Positions 31,298 through 56,392 of a stretch of DNA of 64,000 nt are shown here, in pieces. The stretch comes from Pseudomaricurvus alkylphenolicus (GTDB lineage: Bacteria > Pseudomonadota > Gammaproteobacteria > Pseudomonadales > Cellvibrionaceae). The notes beneath the pieces are model-generated. The model saw only the letters and a list, made by a program, of their open reading frames with translations. It did no database searches and was not told the DNA's origin. The position numbers and the translations under genes are program-made. The stretch covers positions 1-64,000 of the forward strand of contig NZ_JAAQPI010000021.1 in NCBI RefSeq assembly GCF_011683955.1. Reading direction: 5' to 3'. Position 1 is the stretch's first letter. Each line of letters starts with the position of its first letter.

Positions 31298-31906
31298 CTA
31301 TTTAACCGTCAAGATGGATCGCTGGTTTTTACGAATGAAATTATAAAAGTACTTGGGAATCAGCCGCGAGCCCGCTTCACTCGCTCGAAATGCCCGTTGA
31401 AACGCTTCGAAAAATACGGGGTAGTCACTGTGCTCCACCATCAATTCGGTGGAAACCACCCCTCTTAACACCTTCGAAGGGTACCAAGAGTTGATATCGA
31501 GCCCTTCCAAGGGAATCCGCCGGCGTAAGAACGCTCGAAACAGAGAGAATTGAGAGAGAACCACATCGGGGGAATGGTACTCGCCAAATAGGAATGGGGC
31601 CAACTGGTTGTCGATCAGTTCTTGCCAATAACCTGCATTCAGGAGTGTTTGCATTTCGCTTTGTGAGGGATACCACTGAGTGCTGATTCGGACCCCCTCT
31701 TCCGACTGGTAGGACTGCTCAACGTCGGACGAACGTAAATAGGCTACGAAAGCACGGTCACTTTGATCTTGCAGTCCATGAAATTGTTGGTATTGCTTGA
31801 GCGCATTGTTTATAAATTCTGTCGAGTAACCGACTTGTTTCAGCACTAACAATGTTTCTGATGTTGGTGTCCAGGTTGATCCGTCAACCCTGCATTGAGG
31901 CTTCAC
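31298..31906 (-). CDS. DnaT-like primosomal protein, replicon associated
   Basis: The 202-residue protein contains TWTPTSETLLVLKQVGYSTEFI (about 11-32) and a second copy-like segment WYPSQSEMQTLLNAGYWQELI (about 78-98). Each resembles the W-x-P...L...G...FI unit of the DnaT DNA-binding fold. Its start codon overlaps the stop of the Rep gene (ATGA), so it is made together with Rep. A role in loading the helicase or primase at the origin is likely. The match to DnaT is by pattern only. Confidence 0.55.
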   Translation of the reverse strand: MKPQCRVDGSTWTPTSETLLVLKQVGYSTEFINNALKQYQQFHGLQDQSDRAFVAYLRSSDVEQSYQSEEGVRISTQWYPSQSEMQTLLNAGYWQELIDNQLAPFLFGEYHSPDVVLSQFSLFRAFLRRRIPLEGLDINSWYPSKVLRGVVSTELMVEHSDYPVFFEAFQRAFRASEAGSRLIPKYFYNFIRKNQRSILTVK

Positions 31907-33510
31907 TCCTCCGGCTCCAGCAGTGCTTGCATTTGCCGACGCAGTGCCAGGTTGTGAGCGCTGTTGTCCCCAACAATCTCATCGTGCCGGTCACGCCAGA
32001 TGGTAATCACTGGGTAGGTTTTTAGTCGCCGCTTTTTGAGGGTGCGGGTCTTGCGATAAATTTCTTCCGCCAGTTCCTTGTTGAGTTCGAGCTGATAGTA
32101 GTATCCGTTCAACCAGAACACGCCGTTGGGAATGAGCTTGCCCTTTTCATCGTATTGGAAACGCACCGACTCAGCGTGTGGTTCCTGATCTTCCATCTCA
32201 TCTTGCCGTCTCGCTACGTTATAAAACTGGCGCTCAAAGTTGTCCAGCCTGGAAGACGGCCGCACCCGTTGGTGGAAAATATCCAGTGTATAGCGATGAT
32301 GGTCGCGACCATAACCTTTGTCTCGAACACCAACCGTCGGTTTAACCCAGTTGTTCAGACGGTGAACCAGATCCAGACGCTCTCGCTTTAGAGAATCGTG
32401 TGAAATAAAAGCCAACTGCGGAGAGGTCATGGCATTAAAGATGAGAGGATGAAACTTAACGACAAAGTAGCGCTCTTCCATCAGCTGTGTGGTTTGCCCA
32501 TCCTCATCCACCCTTTCATACCAGTCTTCAGCGGAATAAAACTCGGTGATGTAGCTATAGTCACCTTTGGTGAACCGGCTGTCGGGCATATAACGTTGTC
32601 GCCAGTATTCCGACTGCGTGGCATCGACACTGAATTGCGTGTCCTTAAGGCGCTCAACCATCCGCAATACATTGTCACGGTTTTCCTTAACGTTAGAGAC
32701 CAGTCCTATTTCTCGAGTTAATTCATAGATATCAAAAAAACAGTATTCGTTGATCATCTTCGCTGGAGCGGGATCATTGAACAAGTCTGATTGTTTATCG
32801 TCATTGGCTTGTTTTAACATCCCGTTAAGCGCTTGAATCACACGCTGATCGGAACTGTACATGATGCCAGCCCCTTCCTTGGTGGAGGTGGCCGTGGTGA
32901 TATCGACGTAATCGTTTTTCTTGATGAAATAGCGACAGTTGATCAACTTCTCTTTATCGGCTCTTGAGCGGGCTGCCGCTTCGAGAATGCCGAAGGCCCC
33001 TTCGGTGTAAGGTACAACATCGCCCTCCCCTTCCAACCGTGTGATGCCTTTACCTTCTAGAAACTCTGAATACACCACCAAATCGTTGAGTTTCGGTCGC
33101 CCCTGCGGCGACGGTGATTTGTTGGCGGCTGCCTGTAAGTGAGCTAAAACGCCGCTGAGGTTGTTGAGCTGGTGTACGGTGCACTTTCGGCGTTTTCCTG
33201 CAATTTCTCTGTATTCGGGATAAATTCGCATGGAGCCGACACTTTCGAGTTCTTGCACTCTACGGCTGATCATACTGTTGGCCGTCGACAGACCTTTGCT
33301 GGACTCACCCCCGCTGCCTGGAACAACGTGCGATTGCAGCGATTGGTTTAATTCTTCTCGGTTAAGAACCCTTTTATTTAGCGCTACTGAGCCATTGATC
33401 ATGGCAACAACAAACTCTTTCAGCCCTGAACCTTGTGGTATAGAGAGTAGCTCGTGCACAGATTGAGACACTTGTGGCTGAATTTCGTAGAGAGCTGTTG
33501 GTCGCGGCAT
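31903..33510 (-). CDS. replication initiator protein, plasmid/chromid type
   Basis: The 535-residue frame starts at ATG 33510; a longer frame to TTG 33573 would cross operator-like repeats at 33514-33592. The protein looks like large Rep initiators: SVHELLSIPQGSGLKEFVV near the start, winged-helix-like parts in the middle (STANSMISRRVQELES; FDIYELTREIGLVSN), and a long C-terminal basic region (RKTRTLKKRRLKTYPVITIW). Its gene is next to eight iterons and parAB. It would bind the iterons and melt the origin. Exact family not certain; RctB-like or RPA-like Rep are options. Confidence 0.75.
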   Translation of the reverse strand: MPRPTALYEIQPQVSQSVHELLSIPQGSGLKEFVVAMINGSVALNKRVLNREELNQSLQSHVVPGSGGESSKGLSTANSMISRRVQELESVGSMRIYPEYREIAGKRRKCTVHQLNNLSGVLAHLQAAANKSPSPQGRPKLNDLVVYSEFLEGKGITRLEGEGDVVPYTEGAFGILEAAARSRADKEKLINCRYFIKKNDYVDITTATSTKEGAGIMYSSDQRVIQALNGMLKQANDDKQSDLFNDPAPAKMINEYCFFDIYELTREIGLVSNVKENRDNVLRMVERLKDTQFSVDATQSEYWRQRYMPDSRFTKGDYSYITEFYSAEDWYERVDEDGQTTQLMEERYFVVKFHPLIFNAMTSPQLAFISHDSLKRERLDLVHRLNNWVKPTVGVRDKGYGRDHHRYTLDIFHQRVRPSSRLDNFERQFYNVARRQDEMEDQEPHAESVRFQYDEKGKLIPNGVFWLNGYYYQLELNKELAEEIYRKTRTLKKRRLKTYPVITIWRDRHDEIVGDNSAHNLALRRQMQALLEPEE

Positions 33511-33513
33511 GGC

Positions 33514-33592
33514 TTTTGAGGATGTACTTTTGGTTGTGAGGATGAACTTATCAGTTAGCCACTGTTGGATCAAGTCTTTTGAGGTTGTACTT
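33514..33592. promoter_or_regulatory. operator-like repeats at the start of the rep gene
   Basis: TTTTGAGGATGTACTT (33514-33529), TTGTGAGGATGAACTT (33534-33549) and TTTTGAGGTTGTACTT (33577-33592) are near-identical and spaced 20 and 43 bp. On the minus strand they read AAGTAC-A-CCTC, partly like the iteron AAGT-ACCTGC but in the opposite direction. Rep proteins often repress their own gene through such iteron-like operators. Confidence 0.55.
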
Positions 33593-33660
33593 ATGGGTAT
33601 ATCTAGATGCGTTGCTGCCCTTTAGGGGATTCCCAAAGATATTGATCAAGAGAGAAAATA

Positions 33661-33718
33661 CAGAGTAGTAAGAATAAACCAGAGTAAATCTGAATAAGCC
33701 GCAGTAAAACCAGAATAT
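33661..33718. repeat. three imperfect 20-bp direct repeats
   Basis: CAGAGTAGTAAGAATAAAC, CAGAGTAAATCTGAATAAGC and CGCAGTAAAACCAGAATATT follow one another with 19-20-bp period, between the rep gene and the iterons. They are AT rich and may be part of the origin, either an accessory protein site or the melting region. Confidence 0.5.
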
Positions 33719-33754
33719 TTCTTTAGAATCATTAGGTTATGGTAAGGGTACGAT

Positions 33755-33909
33755 AAGTTACCTGCGTAAATAATAGGTAACCTGCCCTTTTGCATAAGTT
33801 ACTCGCATTTGCATGAAAGTCACCTGCGTACATTTATAAGTAACCTGCCTTTTTTGAAAGTAACTTGCATAGTTTAATAAGTTACCTGCGTTTTTTATAA
33901 GTAACTTGC
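33755..33909. repeat. replication origin iterons, eight copies
   Basis: The 11-mer AAGTNACYTGC occurs at 33755, 33775, 33796, 33817, 33838, 33858, 33879 and 33899, all in the same direction and 20-21 bp apart, so all lie on one DNA face. Variants are AAGTTACCTGC, AGGTAACCTGC, AAGTTACTCGC, AAGTCACCTGC, AAGTAACCTGC and AAGTAACTTGC. Such arrays beside a rep gene are the binding sites for the initiator in theta-replicating plasmids and chromids. Confidence 0.92.
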
Positions 33910-33954
33910 CTTCTGAGGGATCTCACTGCTGAAATGTGGCTGAACTCATGGAAA

Positions 33955-33997
33955 AACTGCCTTTTTGGCCTTTTCTTGCCAATGAAATCAGGCAGTT
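33955..33997. promoter_or_regulatory. inverted repeat AACTGCCT / AGGCAGTT before parA
   Basis: Perfect 8-bp arms at 33955-33962 and 33990-33997, followed by another GGCAGT at 33999. The site sits 120 bp upstream of parA. ParA proteins of this class often repress parAB through such dyads. Confidence 0.5.
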
Positions 33998-34113
33998 GAG
34001 GCAGTCAGGTAGACTTATACGCGCCGCGCCGCCCTTTTCCTTGCAATTTAATAAATTCCAGGCAAAATCTCTAAAATATTTAAATTCTGGCTTTTCCTAG
34101 AGGATTTTATTAA

Positions 34114-35355
34114 ATGGCTCTCGATAATCTTCAAAAAATTGAAGAAGTGGATCGCTGGATCGATGCGTGTGGTGACTACCTGGAAGGCCAACAAGAGTTC
34201 GCCAATGAGTTTGTTGAACCGCGTCGATACAAAGGCAATGAATTGGTAGAGGTCGTCGGCGTTACGGCATTGGCGACGATCCATACCGCTGAGAAAGAGG
34301 GGCGTTTGCCGCCACCGGATCTTAATGAGAACAATCGGCGTTTAGGCGCCACCTTGGGGCAGGTCCTTACCATGCAGGATTACTTTGGGACCAGCCCTTG
34401 TCGTCAGTCAGACGACGAGCCCCAGATTCTCAGTTTTATTAACTTCAAGGGAGGGTGTTATAAAAGTACGACGGCACTCTACGCGGGCTCCTACTACGCC
34501 AATCTGGGGTATCGTGTATTGCTGGTTGACTTGGACCCACAGGCATCCCTGACCTTGAATACGGGGTTATTCCCCGATGTGGATTCTTCCTACGAAAGCT
34601 CCTTGGCGCCTTACATTATTGAGGATGTCGATCATCCGCTGGAGAACGTCGAGGCGGTGGTTCGTAAGACTCATCTGCCGAATATGGACATTATCCCCGC
34701 GTGTCTGGATCTTGCGGGTGTCGAGTTCAGTCTCTCTAACGAAGTGGTTGAAAGTCGCATTACCCAAGACAAGGCTGCAATGGCGGGGGTGTTTTTTCGG
34801 GTTCGCGAGGCGCTCTCATCCATTAAGTACAACTACGACCTGGTGATCCTGGACGGTACACCGAGCCTGGGGCTCTTGCCGCTGAATATTATTCTGGCTT
34901 CTGATACCGCCATTGTACCCGTCCCGACGGAAGCGACTGATTTCGCTTCCACTCGCTCGTTTTGCAAACTCTACAAACAGCAGGCGGAAATCTTAAACGA
35001 CGCTTTTGGCGATGATGTTCCTTTGCCTGACATGTTTGTGCTTCCAACTCGCTATTCGCCCTCGGAGCACAATGCAACCGTGAGTTCGCAAGAAATCTTG
35101 AACGCGGTGCGTGAAATCTTCAACGTGAAGTGTCTTGATACCGTGATTCGCAAACATGAATCGGTGGTGAGTAATCTCAGCTTTTTCAGGCGTACGGTTT
35201 TTGATGTGAATGCGGGAGATTGCAATGTTTCCAGGGATGCCCGGAAGAAGGCCATCGCGAACTTTAGTACGGTCTTTAACGAAATTCTGGAAAAAGCGGT
35301 GTTTCCTCACTGGGAATCTAAGCGCGTCTGGCGGGAAGAAAGAGGGATTGTGTGA
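34114..35355 (+). CDS. parA: ParA partition ATPase
   Basis: The 413-residue protein is a type Ia ParA: an N-terminal extension of about 100 residues with a predicted helix-turn-helix that binds its own promoter, then a deviant Walker A FKGGCYKSTTA (residues 111-121, both lysines kept) and Walker B LVILDGTPSLG. VLLVDLDPQASLT carries the A' motif. It moves replicon copies through the cell with ParB and parS. ATG follows AGAGGA by a long spacer. Its stop overlaps the parB start. Confidence 0.95.
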   Translation: MALDNLQKIEEVDRWIDACGDYLEGQQEFANEFVEPRRYKGNELVEVVGVTALATIHTAEKEGRLPPPDLNENNRRLGATLGQVLTMQDYFGTSPCRQSDDEPQILSFINFKGGCYKSTTALYAGSYYANLGYRVLLVDLDPQASLTLNTGLFPDVDSSYESSLAPYIIEDVDHPLENVEAVVRKTHLPNMDIIPACLDLAGVEFSLSNEVVESRITQDKAAMAGVFFRVREALSSIKYNYDLVILDGTPSLGLLPLNIILASDTAIVPVPTEATDFASTRSFCKLYKQQAEILNDAFGDDVPLPDMFVLPTRYSPSEHNATVSSQEILNAVREIFNVKCLDTVIRKHESVVSNLSFFRRTVFDVNAGDCNVSRDARKKAIANFSTVFNEILEKAVFPHWESKRVWREERGIV

Positions 35356-36404
35356 TGGCTAAGGTAGACATGAGTAAATTCCGGGCTAAGCGTTCGGAAG
35401 GTCAGAAGAGTAACGGGGAGGGCAATGCCACTGCTAACACCAAAACACCTCGAACCGAAAAAAGCACTGCGTCGCCTACGTTAAGCCGTGCACCGAAAAG
35501 CGGTGCATTTGGAGGCAAAAAGACAGAGCGAAAGTCCATTCGGCTGCCGGTAACGGGGGCAGACATAGACCTGGTTGCTTCCTCGGTGGATCCTGACTCC
35601 TGTTTGATCCACAAGAACAATCGACGTATTCAGGCGCTGCTGACGGAAGACAATCCGAAAGTGGTTAAGCTGAAGAACGCCATCGAGAAAGAAGGGCAGC
35701 GCGACCCTGTTCTGGCACGAATGATTGAGGTCGATGGTGAAAAACGCGTGGAGATCATCGACGGTTCACGTCGTCGATTTGTCTCGCAGCTGTTAAAACA
35801 GAGCCATCCGGACACAAAACTCAGGGTCTGGATTGGGCATGGAATTAGTGACGCCGATGCCGACTATCTGACGCGCTCGGAAAACGAAAACCGCGATGAC
35901 ATATCCGCTTGGGAAACGGCCCAACACCTTAAGAAACAATTGGACGAAAATCCGACTTGGACACACGATGTCCTCGCCGCTAACGAAGGCATGGCTCGAC
36001 AGACGGTATCAGATTATCTCGCTTTGGCGGAGGTGCCACTGGCACTTGTGCAGCTGCTGTCTTCACCTGACTTGTTGAAGGTGAGTACTGGTCTTCAGAT
36101 CGTAAGGTCCATCAAAAGCCTCTCCGTCAAGGAGCTGAAACAGCTGAGCAAAGCGCTGGAGAAAGAAGCGCCTTTTGGCAAGGCCAATGAGCTGGTGAAG
36201 GCCATCAAGAGCCTGCATAAGCCCGCCACCGCTACCGAGAAACCCACGGCCAACAAGAAGATTGAAATCAAATCGGGCGATACACTGAGGGCAGAGATTG
36301 GCCGTAACCGCCGAGTGCAAGGGCAGTATAAGATCGATCTGTACGATCTGACAGAAAGTGAATATGAGGCCATCTATAACGCTCTCGAGAAACTGCTTAA
36401 ATAG
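35355..36404 (+). CDS. parB: ParB partition protein
   Basis: Start taken at the second ATG (35355, MAKVDMSKF); the frame opens at 35352. The 349-residue protein has a charged, disordered N-terminal 60 residues, a ParB/Srx nuclease-like fold (PVLARMIEVDGEKRVEIIDGSRRRFVSQLL, with the GSRRR nucleotide-binding patch), and a helix-turn-helix (AANEGMARQTVSDYLALAEVP) for parS. A C-terminal dimer region ends the protein. A near-consensus parS lies 155 bp after the gene. Confidence 0.93.
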   Translation: MAKVDMSKFRAKRSEGQKSNGEGNATANTKTPRTEKSTASPTLSRAPKSGAFGGKKTERKSIRLPVTGADIDLVASSVDPDSCLIHKNNRRIQALLTEDNPKVVKLKNAIEKEGQRDPVLARMIEVDGEKRVEIIDGSRRRFVSQLLKQSHPDTKLRVWIGHGISDADADYLTRSENENRDDISAWETAQHLKKQLDENPTWTHDVLAANEGMARQTVSDYLALAEVPLALVQLLSSPDLLKVSTGLQIVRSIKSLSVKELKQLSKALEKEAPFGKANELVKAIKSLHKPATATEKPTANKKIEIKSGDTLRAEIGRNRRVQGQYKIDLYDLTESEYEAIYNALEKLLK

Positions 36405-36411
36405 CCATATG

Positions 36412-36447
36412 GCCTTTGGCCGGAGTCCGGCCAAAGGGGCTGTTTTT
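36412..36447 (+). terminator. intrinsic terminator after parB
   Basis: Perfect 11-bp stem CCTTTGGCCGG / CCGGCCAAAGG with an AGT loop (36413-36437), then GGCTGTTTTT. Confidence 0.88.
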
Positions 36448-36558
36448 AGCTAACCTATTGAAATAACTAGAAAAATAAAATATCACTCCGTGCAAAAATG
36501 CACTTTTTCACCTAAGAGCATCAGTGACACCATTGCAACAGTCGTGGTCAGCGAGAGA

Positions 36559-36574
36559 TGTTTAACGTGAAACA
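36559..36574. promoter_or_regulatory. parS partition site
   Basis: TGTTTAACGTGAAACA differs at one base from TGTTTCACGTGAAACA, the chromosomal-type parS consensus. It lies just downstream of parAB and its terminator. I found no second copy in the window. The resemblance to chromosomal parS, rather than to plasmid centromeres, is notable. Confidence 0.8.
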
Positions 36575-36771
36575 TTCACTCGATATGATGCTTGTCCGCC
36601 TTCTGAATCAGTCGTGCAACGGGAGGCGATGATCACAATGTTCCTACGCTATTTTGTACAGATGCCAAGCCGGCCGTAAACTGTGGATTTGTCGACAACG
36701 CACGAGACAGGTGGTGCTTGAATAAACCGAAATAATCCTATATTAAGAACTAAACGCAAAGGGATAAGCGC

Positions 36772-38151
36772 ATGTTGGGTATTACGACCGCCACACGGCT
36801 GAATGTCAGATCCAAACCAGACGGAAGCAGCAGCAAGCGTGGTTTTTTACCGAAGGGAACGGTAATCACCATAACCGGGCAGATCGATAACTGGTTCGAA
36901 ATTAAATATCAGGATTTCCCCGCCTACCTCTCTTCGCTTTATGTAACGCCATTCACCGGTAACAGTCACTTCAGCGCCAGAGTTACCGCGAACCTGCTTA
37001 ATGTCCGGTCCGATCCCAGCGTTCGAAGCGCCATTATCGGCCAACTGCCAAAATCTGCAGCTGTCACGGTTGTCGCGTTGCACCCCGATTGGGTCGAAAT
37101 CGAGTTTAATGATCGGGTAGCATTTATTGCCAGGGACCACGTGGAGCTGGACGGTATCGACAAACTCACACAGGGAATGGTAACGGCACGTGCCTTGAAT
37201 GTTCGTGGATCCCCGCACAGAGATGGGGCCCTCCTCGGGAGACTATCTCGCAATGCTCGCATTTCCATTCGCGGCCGAAGTGGTGAGTGGCTGCAAATTT
37301 TCTTTAATGGCCAACTGGGGTATGTGCATTCCACTTACATAACCGAGCAGACGCAGTCTGAAAGCGGATCGTTTGGATCAGAATTACCCCAGGAACCCGA
37401 GCCCTCACCCTCTTTAGTTACGACCCATATCTCGCCGAGGGAGCCAACCTTGCTGGCACCTGCCCGGCAGTTACCCCTAACGGGTGATTCGGTATCCATC
37501 AAAGTGTCGCGAACCTGGAACAAATATGGCGCCTTGCTTCAGACGCTATGCGAGGAGATTACTATTGATGTGGCCAGCGCTGTGGCGGTGCTCTGTGTCG
37601 AAAGTTCTGGTGAGGGGTTTAGCGCAAGTAATAATGATCGAATGATCATCCGCTTTGAAAACCACAAATTCTGGAAGTATTGGGGCAAACTCAATCAGCA
37701 GCAGTTCAAGCGTCATTTTGTCTATAACAGCTCCAAAGTCTGGACTGGCCATCAATGGCGTCCGGATAGCGACGACCCATGGCAGAAATTCCATGGTAAC
37801 CAAGTGGAAGAGTGGCGCGTATTGGAGTTTGCTCGGACCCTATCCAACGATGCCGCCTTGATGTCCATCAGTATGGGGGCACCGCAGATTATGGGTTTTC
37901 ATTACCAACGCATTGGTTACCCAACAGCAGAGGCCATGTTTTCGGATTTCAGCCAGAATATTGAGGCCCACATCAAAGGCCTGTTTGCGTTCTTTGACAC
38001 TGCGATGATCAACGCACTAAAAAGCAGTGATTTTGAAACTTTCGCGGGTCGATACAACGGCAGCGGGCAGAAGGAGAAGTACGGCCGCTGGATAAGAGAT
38101 CATCACAAAGCGTTCAGTAGTCTCGCTTTTAATCACAGTTTGTTGAATTAA
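36772..38151 (+). CDS. endolysin: three SH3b domains plus N-acetylmuramidase domain
   Basis: The 459-residue protein has three SH3b cell-wall-binding repeats (about 5-63, 70-125, 135-190, each with LNVRS/LNVRG), a Pro-rich linker (about 195-235) and a DUF3380-type muramidase domain (about 245-455). The latter has AVLCVESSGEGF with the likely catalytic Glu, IIRFENHKFWKYW and SMGAPQIMGFHY. No signal peptide, so release would need a holin, which is encoded 14 bp downstream. It is a phage-type lysis enzyme sitting directly behind a partition locus. Confidence 0.88.
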   Translation: MLGITTATRLNVRSKPDGSSSKRGFLPKGTVITITGQIDNWFEIKYQDFPAYLSSLYVTPFTGNSHFSARVTANLLNVRSDPSVRSAIIGQLPKSAAVTVVALHPDWVEIEFNDRVAFIARDHVELDGIDKLTQGMVTARALNVRGSPHRDGALLGRLSRNARISIRGRSGEWLQIFFNGQLGYVHSTYITEQTQSESGSFGSELPQEPEPSPSLVTTHISPREPTLLAPARQLPLTGDSVSIKVSRTWNKYGALLQTLCEEITIDVASAVAVLCVESSGEGFSASNNDRMIIRFENHKFWKYWGKLNQQQFKRHFVYNSSKVWTGHQWRPDSDDPWQKFHGNQVEEWRVLEFARTLSNDAALMSISMGAPQIMGFHYQRIGYPTAEAMFSDFSQNIEAHIKGLFAFFDTAMINALKSSDFETFAGRYNGSGQKEKYGRWIRDHHKAFSSLAFNHSLLN

Positions 38152-38165
38152 CAAGGAAGCTTCTC

Positions 38166-38612
38166 ATGAGCCCGTTAGCCTTCATCAGCGACATTTTTGC
38201 TCCAGCAGCCAAACTCATTGACGACGTTCATACCAGCACTGAAGAAAAGGGGGAAATCAGGGCCAAGATCAAGGCTCTTGATCTGGAGATCAAAAAAATC
38301 GAAACCGAATTCCGCACTACGGTGATCGATTACGAAACCAAACTCATGGAGAATCAAAGTAAGATCATTCAGGCAGAGGCGACAGGGCAGTCGTGGATAC
38401 AGCGAAACTGGCGCCCACTGACCATGCTGACGTTTGTGGGCTTGATTGTCCTGTTTGCACTGGGTGTCATCGAGCTGAAGGATGAATTTGCCAAGGAATT
38501 CATGCGCCTGGTGCAAATCGGTCTGGGTGGTTATGTGGCTGGCCGTTCAGCGGAGAAGATCTTCCGGGATCGCCGACTGAGTGCCGGCAAGGAGGAAGGT
38601 GCCGTGGGCTAG
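38166..38612 (+). CDS. holin, GTA-type 3TM family
   Basis: The 148-residue protein begins with an amphipathic region and a charged coiled coil (about 22-75, EKGEIRAKIKALDLEIKKIETEF). It ends with IQRNWRPLTMLTFVGLIVLFALGV, a second hydrophobic part and GGYVAGRSAEKIFRD. The WRP-LTML and GYVAGRSAEK patterns are those of the holin family (PF11351) found in gene transfer agents and phages. It would form the pore that lets out the muramidase encoded upstream. Confidence 0.85.
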   Translation: MSPLAFISDIFAPAAKLIDDVHTSTEEKGEIRAKIKALDLEIKKIETEFRTTVIDYETKLMENQSKIIQAEATGQSWIQRNWRPLTMLTFVGLIVLFALGVIELKDEFAKEFMRLVQIGLGGYVAGRSAEKIFRDRRLSAGKEEGAVG

Positions 38613-39024: not shown

Positions 39025-40734
39025 CTAAAGCGCAGGTTCCGTGGTCTTCTCGGTTTGATCTGTGCCTGCGGAAATTGATGGCTTCGACTGCACGGCCGCA
39101 TTAATAACCGCTTGCAGCGACGCACCGACGATGTCTTTGTTTCGGGCAACGCCGATATACCGTTGATTATCGACAGATACCAGAACATAGGTCATGGCCT
39201 GCGAATCCGTGCCGGTGTGCAGCGCATGCTCACTGTAATCGAGAATCTCCACGTGTTTGCCAAAGCGTGTTTGCCAGGCGCTAGTGAGCGCGCTGATGGC
39301 TCCAGCGCCTCGTCCCTGTAAACAGACATTCTCCCGGCCATAGTTGAAGTGCAAAGTCAGAGAGTCCAGGCCCTGATTCTGACTGGCATCCTGTTCGAGC
39401 GTAAAATTACACAGGGCATTATCGCTGGAGCAAGCGAGATAAGACTGTTCGAACACCGCCCAGATTTGCTCCGGACTCAGTTCGCCTGCCATCGCCTCTG
39501 CTTTGGCCTGTACCTTGCGACTGGCATCGATCTGCATCCAGCGCGGCAGCTGCAAATTATAGTCGTTCTCCAATACCCAAGAGACGCCTCCCTTGCCTGA
39601 CTGACTGTTGATGCGAATGACGGCTTCGTAACTGCGACCCAAATCTGCGGGGTCAATGGGGAGGTAGGCAACATCCCACAATTCGTTGGGCTCTTGTATC
39701 GCCATGCATTTCTTAATGGCATCCTGATGACTTCCGGAAAATGCCGTAAACACCAAGTCTCCGGCATAGGGATGCCTTGGGTGTAATGGAATGTTGGTAC
39801 ATTGCTCGACGACGGCGATAATTTCGTCCATCTGAGACAGGTTCAAACATGGATCCACGCCCTGGCTGTAAAGATTCATCGCCATGGTCACAATATCCAT
39901 GTTTCCAGTGCGCTCTCCATTACCCAGTAAGGTTCCTTCAACACGATCGGCACCTGCCAATACGCCCAGTTCGGCAGCCGCCACCGCACATCCGCGATCG
40001 TTATGGGTGTGGAGGGAAACTTTGTATTCTTCGCGATAGCGGCTGGTCTGACAAAAGTACTCCACCTGATCGGCATACACATTGGGACTGGCACATTCTA
40101 CCGTTGCCGGCAGGTTGATGATCATGGGGCAGCCGGATTCGCGCCATTCAGCAATGACAGCATCACAGACTTCCACTGCATAGTCCGTTTCGGTCAGGCT
40201 GAAACTTTCAGGTGAATACTGGAACGACCATTGTGTCTGAGGATGTTGGGCGGCATAGTCGCGAACCCAACGTGCGCCCTGAATGGCGATGTCTTTAACG
40301 CCCTTCTTATCCAGCCCGAATACCTTTTCCCGTTGGGTGGGGTTGGTAGAGTTATACACGTGAACCACAGCTCTCTTGGCTCCGGCCAGGGCCTCAAAGC
40401 TGCGGGCGATTAACGCTTCCCGAGACTGCACCAGCACCTGGATCGTCACATCGTCGGGGATTCGATCACCCTCGATCAGAGCACGTACAAAATCGTAGTC
40501 CGGCTGCGAAGCAGACGGAAATCCCACTTCGATTTCCTTAAATCCTACTTTTACCAATAAATCCCACAGACGCAGTTTCTGCTCCACTGACATGGGTTCC
40601 ACCAGTGCTTGGTTACCATCTCTCAGGTCGACGGAGCACCAGTCGGGCGCCACATCGAGTGTGCGGCTGGGCCATTGTCTGTTGTTAAGGGCGGGACGGA
40701 CGGCGGGTTGATACTTGCGATGGTCAAAACTCAT
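39025..40734 (-). CDS. leuA: 2-isopropylmalate synthase
   Basis: Start at ATG 40734 (MSFDHRKYQPAVRP); the frame is open to 40800 but that part spans a hairpin. The 569-residue enzyme joins acetyl-CoA and 2-oxoisovalerate in the first step of leucine synthesis. The N-terminal TIM barrel has CSVDLRDGNQALVEPMS (metal and substrate site), YQYSPESFSLTE-like FQYSPESFS and SLHTHNDRGCAVAAAELG (two His metal ligands). The C-terminal regulatory domain (about 440-560) is the leucine-sensing LeuA dimer domain of the longer (type 2) form. It faces an Lrp-type regulator. Confidence 0.95.
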   Translation of the reverse strand: MSFDHRKYQPAVRPALNNRQWPSRTLDVAPDWCSVDLRDGNQALVEPMSVEQKLRLWDLLVKVGFKEIEVGFPSASQPDYDFVRALIEGDRIPDDVTIQVLVQSREALIARSFEALAGAKRAVVHVYNSTNPTQREKVFGLDKKGVKDIAIQGARWVRDYAAQHPQTQWSFQYSPESFSLTETDYAVEVCDAVIAEWRESGCPMIINLPATVECASPNVYADQVEYFCQTSRYREEYKVSLHTHNDRGCAVAAAELGVLAGADRVEGTLLGNGERTGNMDIVTMAMNLYSQGVDPCLNLSQMDEIIAVVEQCTNIPLHPRHPYAGDLVFTAFSGSHQDAIKKCMAIQEPNELWDVAYLPIDPADLGRSYEAVIRINSQSGKGGVSWVLENDYNLQLPRWMQIDASRKVQAKAEAMAGELSPEQIWAVFEQSYLACSSDNALCNFTLEQDASQNQGLDSLTLHFNYGRENVCLQGRGAGAISALTSAWQTRFGKHVEILDYSEHALHTGTDSQAMTYVLVSVDNQRYIGVARNKDIVGASLQAVINAAVQSKPSISAGTDQTEKTTEPAL

Positions 40735-40772
40735 GGTGTGGATAGCCTGTGGCAGGTGGGGTGGGAAAGGGG

Positions 40773-40790
40773 AGCCCGGTAAACCGGGCT
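40773..40790. promoter_or_regulatory. hairpin in the leuA leader
   Basis: AGCCCGGT AA ACCGGGCT (40773-40790) forms an 8-bp stem just upstream of the chosen leuA start. On the plus strand it is followed by TTTT, but on the leuA strand by CCCC, so it is not a simple terminator in the leuA direction. It may be part of a leader structure. Confidence 0.4.
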
Positions 40791-40963
40791 TTTCCGTCAT
40801 TGAAGATTCCGGGTAGGAATCGGGTCACGCAATCGGGCCGCGGGGTGATGCAGGCCTTTTGGCGATGGGCCGGAGCGGTAACTCCAATGTTTGTAAAGTG
40901 TATGGCAGGCGTTGGGGTCAATGATTGCGAATCTGCTGCTCCAAGGGATTGATTTTCATTGAA

Positions 40964-47107: not shown

Positions 47108-48736
47108 ATGAATCCTATATCTGAAGACGTCACTGTATTGGACGCTATGGTCATCGGTGCAGGGGTTGCCGGTTTATACCAATTACATCGGTTGCGGGAG
47201 ATGGGCCTGAATGTCCGCGCCTACGAAACGGCTACCGGTGTTGGGGGTACCTGGTATTGGAATCGGTACCCGGGTGCACGATTCGATTCTCAGGTAGAAA
47301 TTTATCAATACTGGTTTTCTGAAGAGCTGTATTGTTCCTGGAAACCCAGCGAACGTTTCCCGGCGCAGCCTGAAACCGAAGAATGGTTGAATTTTGTGGC
47401 CGATCACCTGGATCTCAGGAAAGATATTCAATTCAGCACTCGCATTGCGTCCGCTCACTACGACGAAGACAGCGGTCGCTGGAACGTCACGACGGATGCG
47501 GGTGAAAAGATCAATACGCAATATCTGGTGGCTTGTTGCGGTATGTTGTCCGCGCCGCTGGAAAACCGCTTTCCGGGACAGAAAACTTTCAAGGGTGAGA
47601 TACACCATACCGGTCTGTGGCCAAAAGAAGATGTTGATCTGAAGGGCAAGAAAGTGGCTGTTATCGGTACCGGCGCCACCGGCATTCAGGTGATTCAAAC
47701 CATTGCCCCTGAAGTGGGCTCCATGAAAGTGTTTGTTCGCACACCTCAGTACATCATCCCAATGCGTAACCCGAAATACAGTGAGCAGGACTGGGCCGGT
47801 TGGTGTAACCGTTTCAATGAACTGAAAGCCAAGGTGAAGCAAACCTTTGCTGGTTTTGATTATGATTTCCATGAAAAAGCCTGGTCGGATTGTTCTGATG
47901 CAGAGCGACTGGAATTGTTGGAGAGACGCTGGGACGATGGCTCTCTGTCTCTGTGGCTAGGGTCCTTCCCGGAGATCTTTTTCGACGAAGAGATCAGTGA
48001 AGAGGTTTCAGAATTTATTCGCGGCAAGATGCGCAGTCGACTGGGTAATGATGCGCACCTTTGCAACCTGTTGATTCCAAGCCAGGATGATTACGGTTTT
48101 GGTACTCACCGTGTCCCGCTGGAAAACAAGTATCTGGAAGTGTATCTGCAGGATAATGTTGAGGCGGTTGACTGTAAATCGGCACCCATAGAAGAGATCG
48201 TTGCCGAAGGGATTAAGACAGCGGACGGCAAAGTCCATGAGGTGGACGTGATTATCTTGGCCGTGGGTTTTGATGCCGGGTCGGGCGCCTTGAGCCGAAT
48301 TGACTTCCGTGGTCGTGACAACCGTTCACTCAAGCAACAATGGCAGCAGGAAATTACCACCGCCATGGGTATGCAGATTCACGGTTATCCCAATCTGTTT
48401 GCCACCGGCGCGCCACTGGCGCCTTCCGCTGCACTGTGCAACATGACCACCTGCTTGCAGTACCAGGTAGACTGGATTACCAATTGCATTGCATACGCCA
48501 ATCAACAGGGCAAAAAAGTGGTCGAGGTGTCGAAGGAAACCGAAACCCAATGGGTAGAGCATCACGACGAAGTTGCCTCCAAAACCCTGGTGGTGAAAAC
48601 CGACTCCTGGTATATGGGCTCGAATGTAGAGGGTAAACCCCGTCGCTTGATCTCGTATATTGGTGGAGTGGGGAATTACCACAAACAGTGTGACGATGTG
48701 GCGGCAAAAGGGTATCCCGGCTTCGAGATGACATGA
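47108..48736 (+). CDS. Baeyer-Villiger monooxygenase
   Basis: The 542-residue flavoprotein inserts oxygen next to a carbonyl, turning ketones into esters or lactones with NADPH and O2. It has an FAD fold (VIGAGVAGLYQLHRLREMG), GVGGTWYWNRYPGARFDSQ (typical of type I enzymes of the cyclohexanone and phenylacetone type), the fingerprint FKGEIHHTGLWP, and an NADP fold (VAVIGTGATGIQVIQTIA). Length is standard. It is followed 10 bp later by a hydrolase that could open the ester. Confidence 0.94.
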   Translation: MNPISEDVTVLDAMVIGAGVAGLYQLHRLREMGLNVRAYETATGVGGTWYWNRYPGARFDSQVEIYQYWFSEELYCSWKPSERFPAQPETEEWLNFVADHLDLRKDIQFSTRIASAHYDEDSGRWNVTTDAGEKINTQYLVACCGMLSAPLENRFPGQKTFKGEIHHTGLWPKEDVDLKGKKVAVIGTGATGIQVIQTIAPEVGSMKVFVRTPQYIIPMRNPKYSEQDWAGWCNRFNELKAKVKQTFAGFDYDFHEKAWSDCSDAERLELLERRWDDGSLSLWLGSFPEIFFDEEISEEVSEFIRGKMRSRLGNDAHLCNLLIPSQDDYGFGTHRVPLENKYLEVYLQDNVEAVDCKSAPIEEIVAEGIKTADGKVHEVDVIILAVGFDAGSGALSRIDFRGRDNRSLKQQWQQEITTAMGMQIHGYPNLFATGAPLAPSAALCNMTTCLQYQVDWITNCIAYANQQGKKVVEVSKETETQWVEHHDEVASKTLVVKTDSWYMGSNVEGKPRRLISYIGGVGNYHKQCDDVAAKGYPGFEMT

Positions 48737-48746
48737 GGTGATTGTG

Positions 48747-49787
48747 ATGAGTCACTATTACTCCCAGGAACATCACGGCCCGTATGAATTGATCGATGTT
48801 GGCGATCTGGAGCTGGAAGAGGGTGGCAGAATCCCCAACTGCAAACTGGCCGTCTCCCTGTTTGGAACACTGAATGATGCGAAGGATAATGCCATCCTGA
48901 TCCCAACCTGGTACTCCGGCACCAGCAAGGTCATGGAGGAGGTTTATATCGGCGCAGGCCGTGCACTGGATCCGGAGAAGTACTTCATCATTATTGTTAA
49001 CCAGATCGGCAACGGGTTATCCACCTCCCCCAGCAACGCGGGGGAGGGATTGCAAGGACCGAACTTTCCGCTGGTGCGTATCAGTGATGATGTCCGGGCT
49101 CAGCACCGTCTACTGACCGAGCACTTCGGCATTGACAGCCTGGCACTGGTGGTCGGCGGTTCCATGGGCGCTCAACAAACTTACGAGTGGGCGGTTCGGT
49201 ATCCGAGCTTTGTTAAACGTGTTGCACCCATCGCAGGCACGGCGAAAAACACTGAGCATGATTTTATCTTCGCGGAAACCCTGGCTGAAGCGATTCTCAC
49301 GGACCCCAATTTCAATCACGGGCGCTATGCCTCGTCGGATCTTGTAGCCGATGGATTGAAACGCCATGCAAAGCTCTGGACGGTGATGGGGTGGAGTACG
49401 GAGTTCTTTGCGGCCAACCGACACCATGCACTGGGTTTCGACTCCATGCGTACGTTTGTCGACGAGTTTATGACGGGGTATTTCGCTCCGATGGACCCGA
49501 ACAATTTGCTGCGCATGATGTGGAAATGGCAGAGGGCGGACGTCAGTCGCCATACTGGCGGTGACCTGGCAGCGGCATTGGGTCGAATCAAAGCCAAAGT
49601 GTGTGTTATGCCAATCAGTCATGACATGTTCTTCCCGCCGACGGATGCGGTGGTCGAGCACAATCTGATTCCCAATAGCGAGTTTTGTCCGCTGCAGTCC
49701 ATTGATGGGCATCTGGGGTTGTTTGGTACCGATTCTGTGATGCTGGAGCAGTTGGATCAGTGCCTGTTTGAGTTGTTACAGCACTAG
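48747..49787 (+). CDS. alpha/beta hydrolase, MetX-like (homoserine acetyltransferase family)
   Basis: ATG at 48747 has GAGGTG upstream. The 346-residue protein has the nucleophile elbow VVGGSMGAQQTYEWAVRYP, an acid near PISHDMFFPPTDA and the histidine in SIDGHLGLF, the order of the MetX family. In MetX proteins this fold transfers acyl groups to homoserine, but many neighbours of monooxygenases hydrolyse esters. Placed right after a Baeyer-Villiger enzyme it is best read as the esterase that splits its product. Substrate not known. Confidence 0.85.
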   Translation: MSHYYSQEHHGPYELIDVGDLELEEGGRIPNCKLAVSLFGTLNDAKDNAILIPTWYSGTSKVMEEVYIGAGRALDPEKYFIIIVNQIGNGLSTSPSNAGEGLQGPNFPLVRISDDVRAQHRLLTEHFGIDSLALVVGGSMGAQQTYEWAVRYPSFVKRVAPIAGTAKNTEHDFIFAETLAEAILTDPNFNHGRYASSDLVADGLKRHAKLWTVMGWSTEFFAANRHHALGFDSMRTFVDEFMTGYFAPMDPNNLLRMMWKWQRADVSRHTGGDLAAALGRIKAKVCVMPISHDMFFPPTDAVVEHNLIPNSEFCPLQSIDGHLGLFGTDSVMLEQLDQCLFELLQH

Positions 49788-49883
49788 CCAATACTTTCGG
49801 GGGCAAGGGCGCGACGGCAGGGCGCTGCCCGCCCCCTCTTTTTGACCTGCCCGTCAAGCGTACGATGTTCAGTCGAATCATTT

Positions 49884-49895
49884 GATTATCGGACG
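49884..49895. promoter_or_regulatory. upstream activating element GATTATCGGACG (copy 1)
   Basis: Twelve bases identical to 53293-53304. It is 87 bp before the -24 box of the sigma-54 promoter at 49971, the usual place of an activator site. Confidence 0.6.
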
Positions 49896-49970
49896 CCCGA
49901 CGATACGGTGCCGTTTCCGCCTTCTACAAAACTTTCCAACAAATCAACCACTTGGAGCTGTTATCCGGTT

Positions 49971-49986
49971 TGGCATAGGCCTTGCG
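49971..49986 (+). promoter_or_regulatory. sigma-54 promoter of the AraC-type gene
   Basis: TGGCATAGGCCTTGCG: -24 TGGCAT and -12 TTGCG with the required GG-N10-GC spacing. It is 31 bp before the ATG of the AraC-type gene. Confidence 0.8.
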
Positions 49987-50016
49987 TTAAGTCCCGTACC
50001 CGATCAACGCGAGTTT

Positions 50017-50928
50017 ATGCACATGGCACACTCAATAAATACACCTGCAAATACGACAATAACACCACAAGAACTCCCACACTGGGTACCCGGTAAACTG
50101 CTCAGTAGCAGTGACTCGCTGGGATGGAAGGGCATTGCTCAGAGGTCTTACCGTTATCAGGGGCAGGACGTGCCGATTCCACCCATCGACCACTATATGA
50201 TTGTGCGCTATCGCAAGGCGCATACCCCCATGCAACGTTGCTTCGACGGCCGATGGAGCAAAAAGGTCTGTTCGTCGGGTGACTTGTCTTTACTGACCAG
50301 CATGACGGACTCTCACTGGCACTGGACTCAGGAAATCGATGTGGATCATGTGTACCTCTCCAGCGAGCTGATGTCTCGGGTGGCCGGTGACGCACTGGAT
50401 CGACCGATCGAGGAGGTCTTGTTGCACGATTTATTGCAAATGCAGGACCCCGTGCTTTCAATGATTGTGGATGCAATCCTCAACGAGGCCAGAGATGCCG
50501 GCCTGGGTGGGGCACTCTATGCTGAATCATTGGGCATGCAGCTCGCGGTCCACCTGCTGAGACACTATGCCAACGTCACCTTCAAGAGGCGTGAATCGGT
50601 GGGAGGGTTTACGCCTGCTCAGAAACGTCGCTTGACCGATTACATTCATTGCCATATTCAGGAGACGATCCGGATAGAAGACCTATCGCGAGTCGTCGGG
50701 TTGGGGGATTGGACGTTTTCCCGAAAGTTCTCCGAGTCTTTCAACTGCTCGCCTCACGCTTATGTAACGTCGCTCAGGGTTGAGAAAGCTCAAAACATGC
50801 TGGTGGAAGGAACACTGGCGATCAAGGAGATCGCCTTCGACTGCGGCTTTTCGGATCAGGCGCATTTGACTCGCGTATTGCGAGCCAAGCTGGGAGCGAC
50901 GCCGGGTCAGTTGAGGCGGGCGCGCTGA
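50017..50928 (+). CDS. AraC-family regulator
   Basis: Start at ATG 50017. The 303-residue protein has an AraC N-terminal domain (about 1-195) and a C-terminal double helix-turn-helix (TIRIEDLSRVVGLGDWTFSRKFSESFNCSPHAYV; LAIKEIAFDCGFSDQAHLTRVLRAKLGATPGQLR). It is transcribed from a sigma-54 promoter, so the AcoR-like activator encoded next to it in the opposite direction probably sits above it in a cascade. Confidence 0.92.
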   Translation: MHMAHSINTPANTTITPQELPHWVPGKLLSSSDSLGWKGIAQRSYRYQGQDVPIPPIDHYMIVRYRKAHTPMQRCFDGRWSKKVCSSGDLSLLTSMTDSHWHWTQEIDVDHVYLSSELMSRVAGDALDRPIEEVLLHDLLQMQDPVLSMIVDAILNEARDAGLGGALYAESLGMQLAVHLLRHYANVTFKRRESVGGFTPAQKRRLTDYIHCHIQETIRIEDLSRVVGLGDWTFSRKFSESFNCSPHAYVTSLRVEKAQNMLVEGTLAIKEIAFDCGFSDQAHLTRVLRAKLGATPGQLRRAR

Positions 50929-50942
50929 TTTGCGTGCAAGTG

Positions 50943-52985: not shown

Positions 52986-53252
52986 CCTCTCCTTGCCTGT
53001 ATTCCCAATACCCGTTTTTACGATATCAACTGAACACAGTATCCATCGGGCATAATTTTGTTTAGTTATACAAGTTCACAATTTTTATGAGTATTTTATA
53101 TAGTTATTTTGACTCTCTCTTATTTCATCGATCTACCAACACGCGTTCATAAGCCGCTGTCGATAAACAAAAATCATGTTAGCAGGTGCCATCTTTGTTC
53201 ACAACAGACGTGGTTTCCCATCTACTTTTCGCTAACTCCCGCTTTTACCTGG

Positions 53253-53304
53253 GTTCGATTCAGGGTCGTTCGATCCTGAGGCCAAAGCGTTCGATTATCG
53301 GACG
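53253..53304. promoter_or_regulatory. three GTTCGAT boxes and GATTATCGGACG (copy 2)
   Basis: GTTCGAT occurs at 53253, 53268 and 53289; the last runs into GATTATCGGACG at 53293-53304, the same 12-mer as at 49884. Distance to the -24 box at 53390 is 97 bp, one helical turn more than at the other locus. Confidence 0.6.
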
Positions 53305-53389
53305 GTTCTGATCACTCCGCTTTTTCTCTACTTTTTTAAATCCATTAAAAATCAGCCAGTTATAGGTTCCATGAGAAGGTTTCCCTGTC

Positions 53390-53404
53390 TGGCACAGTTG
53401 TTGC
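53390..53404 (+). promoter_or_regulatory. sigma-54 promoter of the DUF1302 operon
   Basis: TGGCACAGTTGTTGC: -24 TGGCAC, -12 TTGC with exact spacing. It is 50 bp before the DUF1302 start codon. Confidence 0.88.
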
Positions 53405-53453
53405 GAAACTCTGAGAGCACAGGTTTACCGATAACAAAAGAGAGAGTGTAAAG

Positions 53454-55094: not shown

Positions 55095-55111
55095 TTTGCG
55101 AGGAACAGAAT

Positions 55112-56392
55112 ATGTATAAGCAATTATTGGTGTCATCCGTAGTTTCCCTGGGGCTGTTCTTAGGCGGTGTCAGCGCTGCACAGTCAGCCGAGGAGCTGGC
55201 CGCCGGCACTGTAATCAGCAAAGCCAACTTCGATGACGTTAAAGACAAGTTGTTCGAAGGCAAGCGTGTCGGCGATATGATTCCGGAGCGTCTGGAATGG
55301 ATGATTCGCGAACGCGAACTGACCATGAAGATTCGCCACTCGGAGAAAATCGAGATGGACGAAAAATACATGCAGGCAACCCAGGAGGGTAAGGGCAAAG
55401 TCAAGTTTGATCCCACGACCCGCCAGGTTTCGGGTTGGACCGCCGGCATGTTCTTTGATCCCCAGGACATCGACGTTAACGACCCCCATGCGGGCGACAA
55501 AATCATCTGGAACCTGCGCGGGCCCACCTACGGCGCCACCATGGATTTGCGCAATATTTCTTTTGTGTTTATCGACGGCAACAAAGGCGTCGAGCGCATT
55601 CAGCGTTGGTGGTCTCGGCGCTATTATATGGAAGGTCGCCTGGATGGCGGTCCAGTACAAGAGGGCGATGGCAGCGTCATGCAAAAGACCATTCTCGTGG
55701 CCACCAGCCCCCAGGACATTAAAGGCCTCGGCACCTATTCGGTTCGCTACAACGACCCCAGTGCCGCCAAGCCGGACGATACCTGGGCGTATCTGAAATC
55801 CGTGCGTCGCGCACGTCGCCTGACCGGTAGCGCCTGGATGGACCCAATTGGGGGTACGGTACAACTCTACGACGACTGGGACATCTGGGACGCGGTGCCG
55901 ACCAAATACAAGTCCACCAAGTTGATTGGCAAGCGCTGGGTATTCGCCATCGCACACAGCCCTGAAGTAAGCGTCGACCTTTCCAAAAAGGGCACTAAGG
56001 AAGAGTTTCCCAGCGTCGGTTTGAGCGAAGCGCCTTATTACTACCCGGCCAAGCATATCGAGTGGGAGCCCCGCGAGGTGTTTGTGGTGGAAGGCACTCC
56101 GCCCGATGGTCATCCGTACAGCAAGAAGATTGTCTATATGGAGAAGGATTGGCCGCGCCCCTACCTGGGAGAAGCCTACGACCGTAACGGCAAATTCTGG
56201 AAGTTCTTTATCTTCCAAAACCGTCCGGATGTTGGTGAGGACGGTTACAAGGCGGTGATGCCGGTAGTGGGTCATGTTATTGACTACAAGGCTAACTTCT
56301 CGACCACTTGGTCTTCAAACATGAAGTCGAATCCAAAAGGGGTTGAAGCTGACGATGTCACGCTCAAACAGTTGGTCAAAATTGCCCGCTAA
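55112..56392 (+). CDS. DUF1329 periplasmic protein
   Basis: The 426-residue protein has a signal peptide (about 1-28, cut after AQSA) and a LolA-like fold with the usual DUF1329 pieces: GDMIPERLEWMIRE, WRRYYMEGRLDG-type RWWSRRYYMEGRL, and EREVFVVEG-like PREVFVVEGTPPD. It lies 17 bp after the DUF1302 gene; the two nearly always travel together. A carrier of lipids or similar compounds between membranes is the best guess. Confidence 0.9.
   Translation: MYKQLLVSSVVSLGLFLGGVSAAQSAEELAAGTVISKANFDDVKDKLFEGKRVGDMIPERLEWMIRERELTMKIRHSEKIEMDEKYMQATQEGKGKVKFDPTTRQVSGWTAGMFFDPQDIDVNDPHAGDKIIWNLRGPTYGATMDLRNISFVFIDGNKGVERIQRWWSRRYYMEGRLDGGPVQEGDGSVMQKTILVATSPQDIKGLGTYSVRYNDPSAAKPDDTWAYLKSVRRARRLTGSAWMDPIGGTVQLYDDWDIWDAVPTKYKSTKLIGKRWVFAIAHSPEVSVDLSKKGTKEEFPSVGLSEAPYYYPAKHIEWEPREVFVVEGTPPDGHPYSKKIVYMEKDWPRPYLGEAYDRNGKFWKFFIFQNRPDVGEDGYKAVMPVVGHVIDYKANFSTTWSSNMKSNPKGVEADDVTLKQLVKIAR

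What the first reader, a model, noticed from the sequence alone, without database searches (positions are those of the whole stretch)
31298..36574. A complete iteron replicon core with a chromosomal-type parS
In order there are a DnaT-like protein, a Rep initiator, operator repeats, eight iterons AAGTNACYTGC with 20-21-bp period, parA, parB, terminator and TGTTTAACGTGAAACA, one base from the chromosomal parS. Plasmid centromeres usually differ from chromosomal parS, so this mix is unusual and may mark a chromid.
Basis: partly seen in the sequence, partly recalled or inferred. Interest (0 to 1): 0.8.

Follow-up and report, generated by a model that had tools for sequence, protein, structure and literature searches.

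The report
Shared parS-like mark on secondary replicons
A bacterium with several DNA molecules appears to carry the same altered version of a chromosome-segregation signal once beside the replication origin of each of its three extra molecules and nowhere else in its draft genome, which suggests that one protein may recognise all of them.

Summary
The anatomy is real. The window (contig C13, 95 kb, of an 8.88-Mb draft genome) holds a DnaT-like gene, a Rep distantly related to the Vibrio Chr2 initiator RctB, eight iterons, SopA/SopB-like ParAB, a terminator and TGTTTAACGTGAAACA. The finding is larger than reported. This 16-mer, one base from canonical parS, occurs exactly three times in the draft genome: once beside each of its three plasmid-type parAB clusters (C13, C11, C45), in otherwise unrelated flanks. 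It is absent from the 143 other family genomes searched. The chromosome uses another parS variant (TGTTTCACGTGGAACA, twice). GC skew turns at or near the C11 and C45 clusters. The local ParB lacks most parS-contacting residues, and C45's own ParAB has a different candidate centromere. Best candidate readers are Spo0J-type ParBs acting in trans: an orphan ParB on C45 that lacks the ParA-binding motif, or the chromosomal ParB. "Chromid" is unsupported for C13: its leuA has an 85%-identical second copy. Shown: site distribution, protein families, residue signatures. Binding is untested. A new variant of a known kind, testable by ChIP-seq or bio-layer interferometry.

The parts
31298..31906 (-). 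DnaT-like primosome-type protein, overlapping the end of rep
   Evidence: Pfam PF17948 24.1 bits against a cut-off of 25; the gene next to the related Rep in G003 scores 66.5 bits
31903..33573 (-). Rep, remote RctB-related plasmid initiator (likely ATG at 33510)
   Evidence: 120.7 bits against an HMM of five related Reps; of 20 shuffles one was reported, at 1.2 bits; one relative hits RctB_central above the cut-off
33508..33596 (.). three ~20-nt direct repeats at the rep start, candidate autoregulatory operator
   Evidence: the repeat finder family D2; function inferred
33753..33910 (+). eight iterons AAGTNACYTGC, 20-21 bp period
34043..34118 (.). 17-nt inverted repeat over the parA start, candidate ParA operator
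   Evidence: the repeat finder I1; function inferred
34114..35355 (+). ParA, SopA/RepA-like
35352..36404 (+). ParB, SopB-like
   Evidence: NCBIfam TIGR00180 64.9 bits (cut-off 58.45), PRK13698 64.5 bits (cut-off 274); most parS-contact residues absent
36413..36437 (+). terminator hairpin after parB
   Evidence: perfect 12+1+12 inverted repeat; T run read
36559..36574 (+). parS-variant site TGTTTAACGTGAAACA, one of three identical copies in the genome
   Evidence: overlaps no ORF of 60 aa or more

Best explanation
C13 is a contig of a separate low-copy secondary replicon. An RctB-related Rep, probably helped by the DnaT-like protein, starts replication at the iterons, and the SopAB-like proteins partition it. 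The 16-mer downstream of parB is not this ParB's own centromere. It is a mark shared by the three secondary replicons of the cell, derived from chromosomal parS but with one altered half-site (TGTTTAAC) and one canonical half-site (TGTTTCAC). A Spo0J-type ParB loads on it in trans. The orphan ParB on C45 is the more likely reader, the chromosomal ParB the alternative. That ParB, as a sliding CTP clamp, would give the secondary origins what their plasmid-type ParBs probably lack, such as SMC loading or contact between origins. Shown: the anatomy, the distribution of the site, the skew turns at C11 and C45, and the residue signatures. Inferred: separate replicons, binding, the choice of reader, and the function.
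For: Three exact copies, one beside each of the three parA genes that I found with a parB next to them besides soj (C13, C11, C45), among 11 ParA-superfamily matches in the genome. 0 copies in the 143 other family genomes searched. Flanks unrelated beyond a shared TT, while the ParBs beside two of the copies are only 35% identical and C45's is of another kind, so the identity of the site, odd A included, points to selection by a common reader. Cumulative GC skew turns in the 20-kb block of the C11 cluster and about 12 kb from the C45 rep. C45's own ParAB has GTCTCCTNAGGAGAC x3 nearby, with no copy (up to one mismatch) in the C11, C13 or C23 sequence held. Chromosomal and orphan ParB match 7 of 8 parS-contact positions, against 3, 3 and 2 of 8 for the local ParBs of C13, C11 and C45 (positions from PMC7383237, passages read; the numbering was carried over by me from the GKSR motif). 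The orphan lacks the LG[KR]GL ParA-binding motif, as orphans such as Noc often do (PMC12704722, passages read). Orphan ParBs fall on one side of a branch from 28 chromosomal ParBs. 9 of 11 other plasmid orphan parB genes that I examined have a parS-like palindrome within 40 nt of their annotated start.
Against: No binding data. The C45 orphan has no parS-like site at its own start; its nearest is about 1.25 kb past its stop. G003 has a related orphan (47% identical) but nothing within three mismatches of parS on its 17-kb contig. Chromosomal ParB of P. aeruginosa binds sites with one intact arm, more weakly (PMC4368675, passages read), so no special reader is needed. The orphans sit on long branches, with a warning from the tree tool. 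The genome is a draft, so three separate replicons are inferred; C11's rep has no Pfam hit and is named by position and repeats. Only about 31 kb lie to the right of the C45 cluster and the skew there is weak; the C13 skew change is weak too. The C11 copy overlaps a 75-codon mechanical ORF.
Confidence: 0.52

Rival explanations
1. The chromosomal Spo0J-type ParB (C23) reads the three sites. Secondary replicons captured weak chromosomal parS sites so that host ParB and SMC handle them too; the altered half-site keeps binding weaker than at oriC.
For: Chromosomal ParB has the parS-contact residues. One half-site is canonical. P. aeruginosa ParB binds sites with one intact arm, more weakly (PMC4368675, passages read).
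Against: The two chromosomal sites use another variant (TGTTTCACGTGGAACA) and the three secondary sites all share the same different base. The change breaks the CACGTG core that PMC4368675 finds important. The exact variant occurs in none of the other 143 family genomes.
Confidence: 0.28
2. Each replicon's own ParB reads the site as its ordinary centromere.
For: The site lies about 155 bp after parB in C13 and 0.77 kb after parB in C11, in the same orientation. No other repeated perfect palindrome was found in C13 and no repeat array after parB, so C13 has no other obvious centromere.
Against: The three ParBs are divergent or unlike, with different recognition helices and 2-3 of 8 parS-contact positions (that part of the alignment is uncertain). 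C45 has its own palindrome set GTCTCCTNAGGAGAC. Shared centromeres are expected to make replicons incompatible (general knowledge). G022, with a 37%-identical ParB, has nothing closer than three mismatches from canonical parS in the 10 kb around its par locus.
Confidence: 0.1
3. The 16-mer is the target of an unrelated factor (a regulator or recombinase), or the three copies are a relic of common descent or gene conversion without function.
For: Only DNA evidence exists.
Against: parS-like palindromic structure, proximity to all three plasmid-type par loci, flanks unrelated, chance about 4e-9 for three exact copies.
Confidence: 0.1

Closest known systems
Chromosomal ParABS with Spo0J-type ParB and 16-bp parS
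   Same: The 16-mer differs by one base from canonical parS; the candidate readers carry the parS-contact residues.
   Different: Sits beside plasmid-type ParAB, away from the dnaA/soj/parB region; altered half-site in the CACGTG core; this variant was not found elsewhere in the genome.
Noc/NBS and other orphan ParBs (PMC12704722, PMC7383237, passages read)
   Same: An orphan ParB without the ParA-binding motif, and a parS-derived site.
   Different: Keeps R173/G201 (the parS class, not Noc's Q/R); encoded on a secondary replicon; only three exact sites, one beside each plasmid-type par locus.
Orphan ParBs of Pseudomonas megaplasmids (pQBR57, pQBR103 and others)
   Same: Spo0J-type orphan near a separate ParAB; parS-like sites.
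   Different: Their site is at the orphan's own start; the C45 orphan's nearest site is not, and identical sites lie on two other contigs.
Vibrio Chr2 RctB/iteron origin
   Same: Rep belongs to a plasmid Rep family with a link to RctB; iterons; plasmid-type ParAB nearby.
   Different: The link to RctB is indirect; no GATC in the iteron block; small contig; no crtS-like site was sought.
F plasmid SopABC
   Same: ParA and ParB resemble SopA and SopB.
   Different: No sopC-like repeat array after parB; Rep has no Rep_3 hit.
Agrobacterium ParB1-RepB origin clustering (PMC9239152, abstract and outline read)
   Same: Coupling of the origins of several replicons through ParB-family proteins.
   Different: There through interactions between the centromeric proteins of the replicons; here proposed through one shared DNA site.

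Membership tests
Chromosomal-type parS | 16-bp palindrome TGTTNCACGTGAAACA, at most about one mismatch | tested here: met
   one mismatch, but it falls in the CACGTG core
Chromosomal-type parS | near an origin | tested here: met
   beside a rep/parAB cluster in 3 of 3 copies (C11 rep by position only); GC skew turns at or near two of the clusters
Chromosomal-type parS | bound by Spo0J-type ParB | not testable with these tools
   needs ChIP-seq, bio-layer interferometry or EMSA
Spo0J/ParB (C45 orphan) | ParB N-terminal and HTH domains; GERRxRA box | tested here: met
   PF02195 81.5 bits, PF17762 121.9 bits; dimerisation domain PF23552 23.1 bits, just under its cut-off of 23.8; GERRWRA
Spo0J/ParB (C45 orphan) | adjacent partner parA and ParA-binding motif | tested here: not met
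   no motif; the nearest parA, 2.8 kb away, forms a pair with another parB; hence called an orphan ParB
RctB initiators (window Rep) | RctB_central domain PF11826 above cut-off | tested here: not met
   window Rep has no such hit; the Teredinibacter relative 33.8 bits against a cut-off of 27; six-sequence profile to RctB structures E 8e-18, but no hit for the four sequences without the two Pfam-matching members or for two sequences
RctB-related plasmid Rep family (window Rep) | profile match to members on other plasmids | tested here: met
   120.7 bits with five relatives, 72.4 bits without the G003 Rep; of 20 shuffles the best reported 1.2 bits
SopB-like ParB (window ParB) | NCBIfam plasmid ParB models | tested here: inconclusive
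   TIGR00180 above cut-off (64.9 against 58.45), PRK13698 64.5 bits, below its equivalog cut-off of 274
Chromid | unique core genes | tested here: inconclusive
   leuA duplicated elsewhere; no tRNA; no other gene tested for uniqueness

The most novel reading that the evidence does not exclude
A single orphan, plasmid-lineage ParB encoded on one secondary replicon (C45) reads an identical, selectively kept asymmetric parS variant on all secondary replicons of the cell. It acts as a common trans-acting address that loads SMC or ties their origins together, apart from the chromosome's own parS set.
Probability: 0.33. Interest if true: 0.82.

Novelty: new variant of a known kind. Interest (0 to 1): 0.6.

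Why it matters
How cells with several large replicons coordinate them is open. Hi-C shows origin-associated contacts in many species, including ones with non-RepABC replication systems (PMC13342612, passages and section 14 read). In the two cases I read, partition systems were replicon-specific: Thermus (PMC4409726, passages) and the Streptomyces plasmid SCP1 (PMC13245405, abstract and sections 29 and 31). One identical noncanonical parS beside three par loci with different Rep and Par proteins departs from that and gives a three-site, two-protein hypothesis that one ChIP-seq experiment could settle. It also points to plasmid-borne orphan ParBs with their own parS variants on Pseudomonas megaplasmids, whose function was not described in the passages I read.

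Tried and rejected
Chromid reading by leuA: weakened by the second copy. C4 ParA as a fourth replicon: its neighbours read as chemotaxis and motility genes (my reading). The motif in viral contigs: 65 stretches match, and tblastn at E 1e-3 with the orphan ParB, window ParB and window ParA found nothing in the 65 stretches held, so treated as chance. L011 as a Rep relative: the stretch lies in ORFs that I read as tRNA-modification genes, rejected. Rep by its own sequence: no match in plasmids or phages, one rejected match in genome contigs, only a chance-level match in PDB (E 0.24); in viral contigs a two-sequence alignment found nothing. Relatives on plasmids came only through the G003 Rep. 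Structure prediction of Rep from a single sequence: pLDDT 32.7, unusable, no fold search made. Circularity of C13: no terminal overlap, inconclusive. The host family (probably Cellvibrionaceae) is my inference from the make-up of the family and the Teredinibacter hit; no call names the host.

The 11 plasmid orphan loci (10 Pseudomonadaceae, 1 Legionella) were picked by me from 40 listed hits among 2,794 records; some are near-copies (pQBR103 and P. rhodesiae), and the region scanned was set after seeing the sequences. The tree left out the Legionella and P. rhodesiae proteins, and 27 of 28 chromosomal loci gave a usable protein. That a parS shared by several replicons is not in print rests on searches only.
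Full report
OBSERVATION. The sequence read and the ORFs confirm the described order. Pfam and NCBIfam place parA and parB with plasmid type-I partition proteins (SopA/RepA and SopB-like). The iterons are real: all six exact AAGTNACYTGC matches in the 64-kb window lie within 155 bp, and two copies with one mismatch complete a set of eight with 20-21 bp spacing. A perfect 12+1+12 hairpin follows parB. The 16-mer TGTTTAACGTGAAACA lies about 155 bp after the parB stop and overlaps no ORF of 60 aa or more.

SETTING. The window is C13:1-64000 of an unnamed 8.88-Mb draft genome of 70 contigs; C13 is 95,192 bp. The five other genomes searched from the same genus are 4.0-5.7 Mb. dnaA, soj, parB (my reading of the translations) and two parS sites lie on C23. 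Two other contigs, C11 (1.39 Mb) and C45 (613 kb), carry their own par clusters; C45's Rep matches RPA (205.6 bits), C11's presumed Rep has no Pfam hit and is named by position and nearby repeats. Cumulative GC skew reaches its minimum in the 20-kb block of the C11 cluster over 400 kb, turns at 563 kb on C45 (rep at 575.7 kb; only about 31 kb follow the cluster and they are weakly skewed), and turns at dnaA on C23; the change on C13 near 30-35 kb is weak. So C11 is well supported and C45 fairly supported as a secondary origin; C13 is probably a third.

THE SITE IS SHARED. Within two mismatches of canonical parS the genome has 8 places, against 2 for the reversed control pattern. Five have one mismatch: two at the chromosomal oriC (TGTTTCACGTGGAACA, on opposite strands) and three identical TGTTTAACGTGAAACA on C13, C11 and C45. 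Flanks of the three share nothing obvious beyond TT. In C13 and C11 the site follows parB in the same orientation; in C45 it lies about 1.5 kb upstream of parA and about 1.25 kb past the end of an orphan parB. The C13 and C45 copies overlap no ORF of 60 aa or more, the C11 copy overlaps a 75-codon mechanical ORF. About 0.003 exact copies are expected by base composition alone, P about 4e-9 for three. An AAA_31 scan finds 11 ParA-superfamily matches. Besides soj, I found a parB next to three of them (C13, C11, C45); the others read as chemotaxis or motility types, MinD-, Mrp- and tyrosine-kinase-like proteins and two ParA-like genes without a parB seen in the 3 kb held (identities partly my reading). 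Among 144 family genomes, own included, only this one has the exact 16-mer. In 38 genomes, own included, searched with one mismatch, 24 have sites and none but this one has the A variant.

WHO READS IT. The local ParBs differ: C13 and C11 ParB are 35% identical and C45's is of another kind. At eight parS-contact positions taken from PMC7383237 (passages read), the chromosomal ParB and the C45 orphan match 7 of 8, while the C13, C11 and C45 partition ParBs match 3, 3 and 2 of 8 (the alignment of the plasmid-type proteins is uncertain). C45's own par locus has three perfect GTCTCCTNAGGAGAC palindromes plus one near copy, and none occurs in the C11, C13 or C23 sequence held, so that ParAB has another candidate centromere. 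For C13 no such alternative was found, which is the best point for the local-ParB rival. The C45 orphan is a Spo0J-type ParB (best PDB relatives Spo0J, ParB and Noc) without the ParA-binding motif. It is 40% identical to the chromosomal ParB. In a 39-row tree, 11 orphans (9 from plasmid records, C45, G003) fall on one side of a branch from 28 chromosomal ParBs (with a long-branch warning). In the family only G003 has a second such protein among matches at E <= 1e-40.

PLASMID ORPHANS ELSEWHERE. Similar orphans lie on Pseudomonas and Halopseudomonas megaplasmids: in 8 of 10 records examined the order is orphan ParB - hypothetical - ParA - ParB or hypothetical, and in the other two the stretch ended at the record's end. 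A 2021 paper noted two ParB-like genes without adjacent parA on pQBR57 (PMC8544851, passages read). 9 of the 11 plasmid orphan genes examined have a parS-like palindrome within 40 nt of their annotated start; per locus, 0 to 8 of 212 to 489 control windows score as well. The P. aeruginosa DN1 and Legionella ones do not, nor do the C45 and G003 orphans. A stricter search over 12 plasmid records (two mismatches) found matches in 4 of 12, in three of them at the orphan start; the reversed control pattern matched in 3 of 12. pQBR57 has TGTTCCGCGTGGAACA, again one altered and one canonical half-site. So orphan ParBs with their own parS variants look like a recurring kind, but the C45 case is not a textbook member of it.

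REP. The window Rep has no Pfam hit above cut-off, no PHROG or phage or plasmid match, and only a chance-level PDB match by itself. A same-genus relative, also next to a DnaT-domain gene, leads to Reps on Teredinibacter, Marinobacter, Neptuniibacter and Hydrocarboniclastica plasmids. Of these five relatives, three (G003, Marinobacter, Neptuniibacter) have parAB within about 4 kb; none was annotated in the stretches fetched for the other two. The Teredinibacter one matches RctB_central above cut-off, the Neptuniibacter one below it. A six-sequence profile matches RctB structures at E 8e-18, though profiles without the Pfam-matching members do not. An HMM of the five relatives scores the window Rep at 120.7 bits. 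I therefore file it as an RctB-related plasmid Rep, not as RctB.

MECHANISM. Most likely: Rep on the iterons starts replication, SopAB-like proteins partition the replicon, and the extra parS variant lets a Spo0J-type ParB load in trans on every secondary replicon. From known ParB biology (CTP clamps, SMC recruitment near oriC) the effect would be arm organisation or origin coupling; this step is inference. The constant altered base, which breaks the CACGTG core that matters for P. aeruginosa ParB (PMC4368675, passages read), favours a reader other than the chromosomal ParB, but does not prove it.

VERDICT. The core is a real but ordinary kind of replicon. The shared parS variant is the interesting part: a new variant of a known kind, statistically secure, mechanistically open and cheap to test.

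Noticed in passing
L168, L169, L172, L174-L179 (Pseudomonas/Halopseudomonas megaplasmids): Orphan Spo0J-type parB genes carry a parS-like palindrome within 40 nt of their annotated start (9 of 11 plasmid loci examined); some orphans have A, S or T instead of G at position 201.
   Followed up: partly
L014:6097, 7914, 8609 (C45): Three perfect GTCTCCTNAGGAGAC palindromes around parAB of C45, a candidate dedicated centromere.
   Followed up: partly
L013:9966-10414 and 7208 (C11): Iteron-like repeats with a GCGTCGGTTTCCCAC core beside a presumed Rep without any Pfam hit, and one palindrome TGTTCACTGTGAACA after parB.
   Followed up: no
36534-36546 and 36604-36616: Two 13-nt near-copies (TGCAACAGTCGTG / TGAATCAGTCGTG) lie on either side of the parS variant; may be chance.
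   Followed up: no
36772-38612: N-acetylmuramidase with SH3 repeats followed by a holin-like gene, a phage-type lysis pair directly after the parS variant.
   Followed up: no
47108-60170: Flavin monooxygenase, hydrolase, AraC and sigma-54 regulators, DUF1302, DUF1329, BNR and MMPL genes: looks like a catabolic or lipid-transport cluster.
   Followed up: no
39025-40800: leuA-like gene with an 85%-identical copy on contig C18.
   Followed up: partly
L019 (G003:C34): 17-kb contig with a related Rep, DnaT-domain protein, another ParAB and an orphan ParB with two imperfect ACTGTCTT...AAGACAG palindromes upstream, read by eye.
   Followed up: partly
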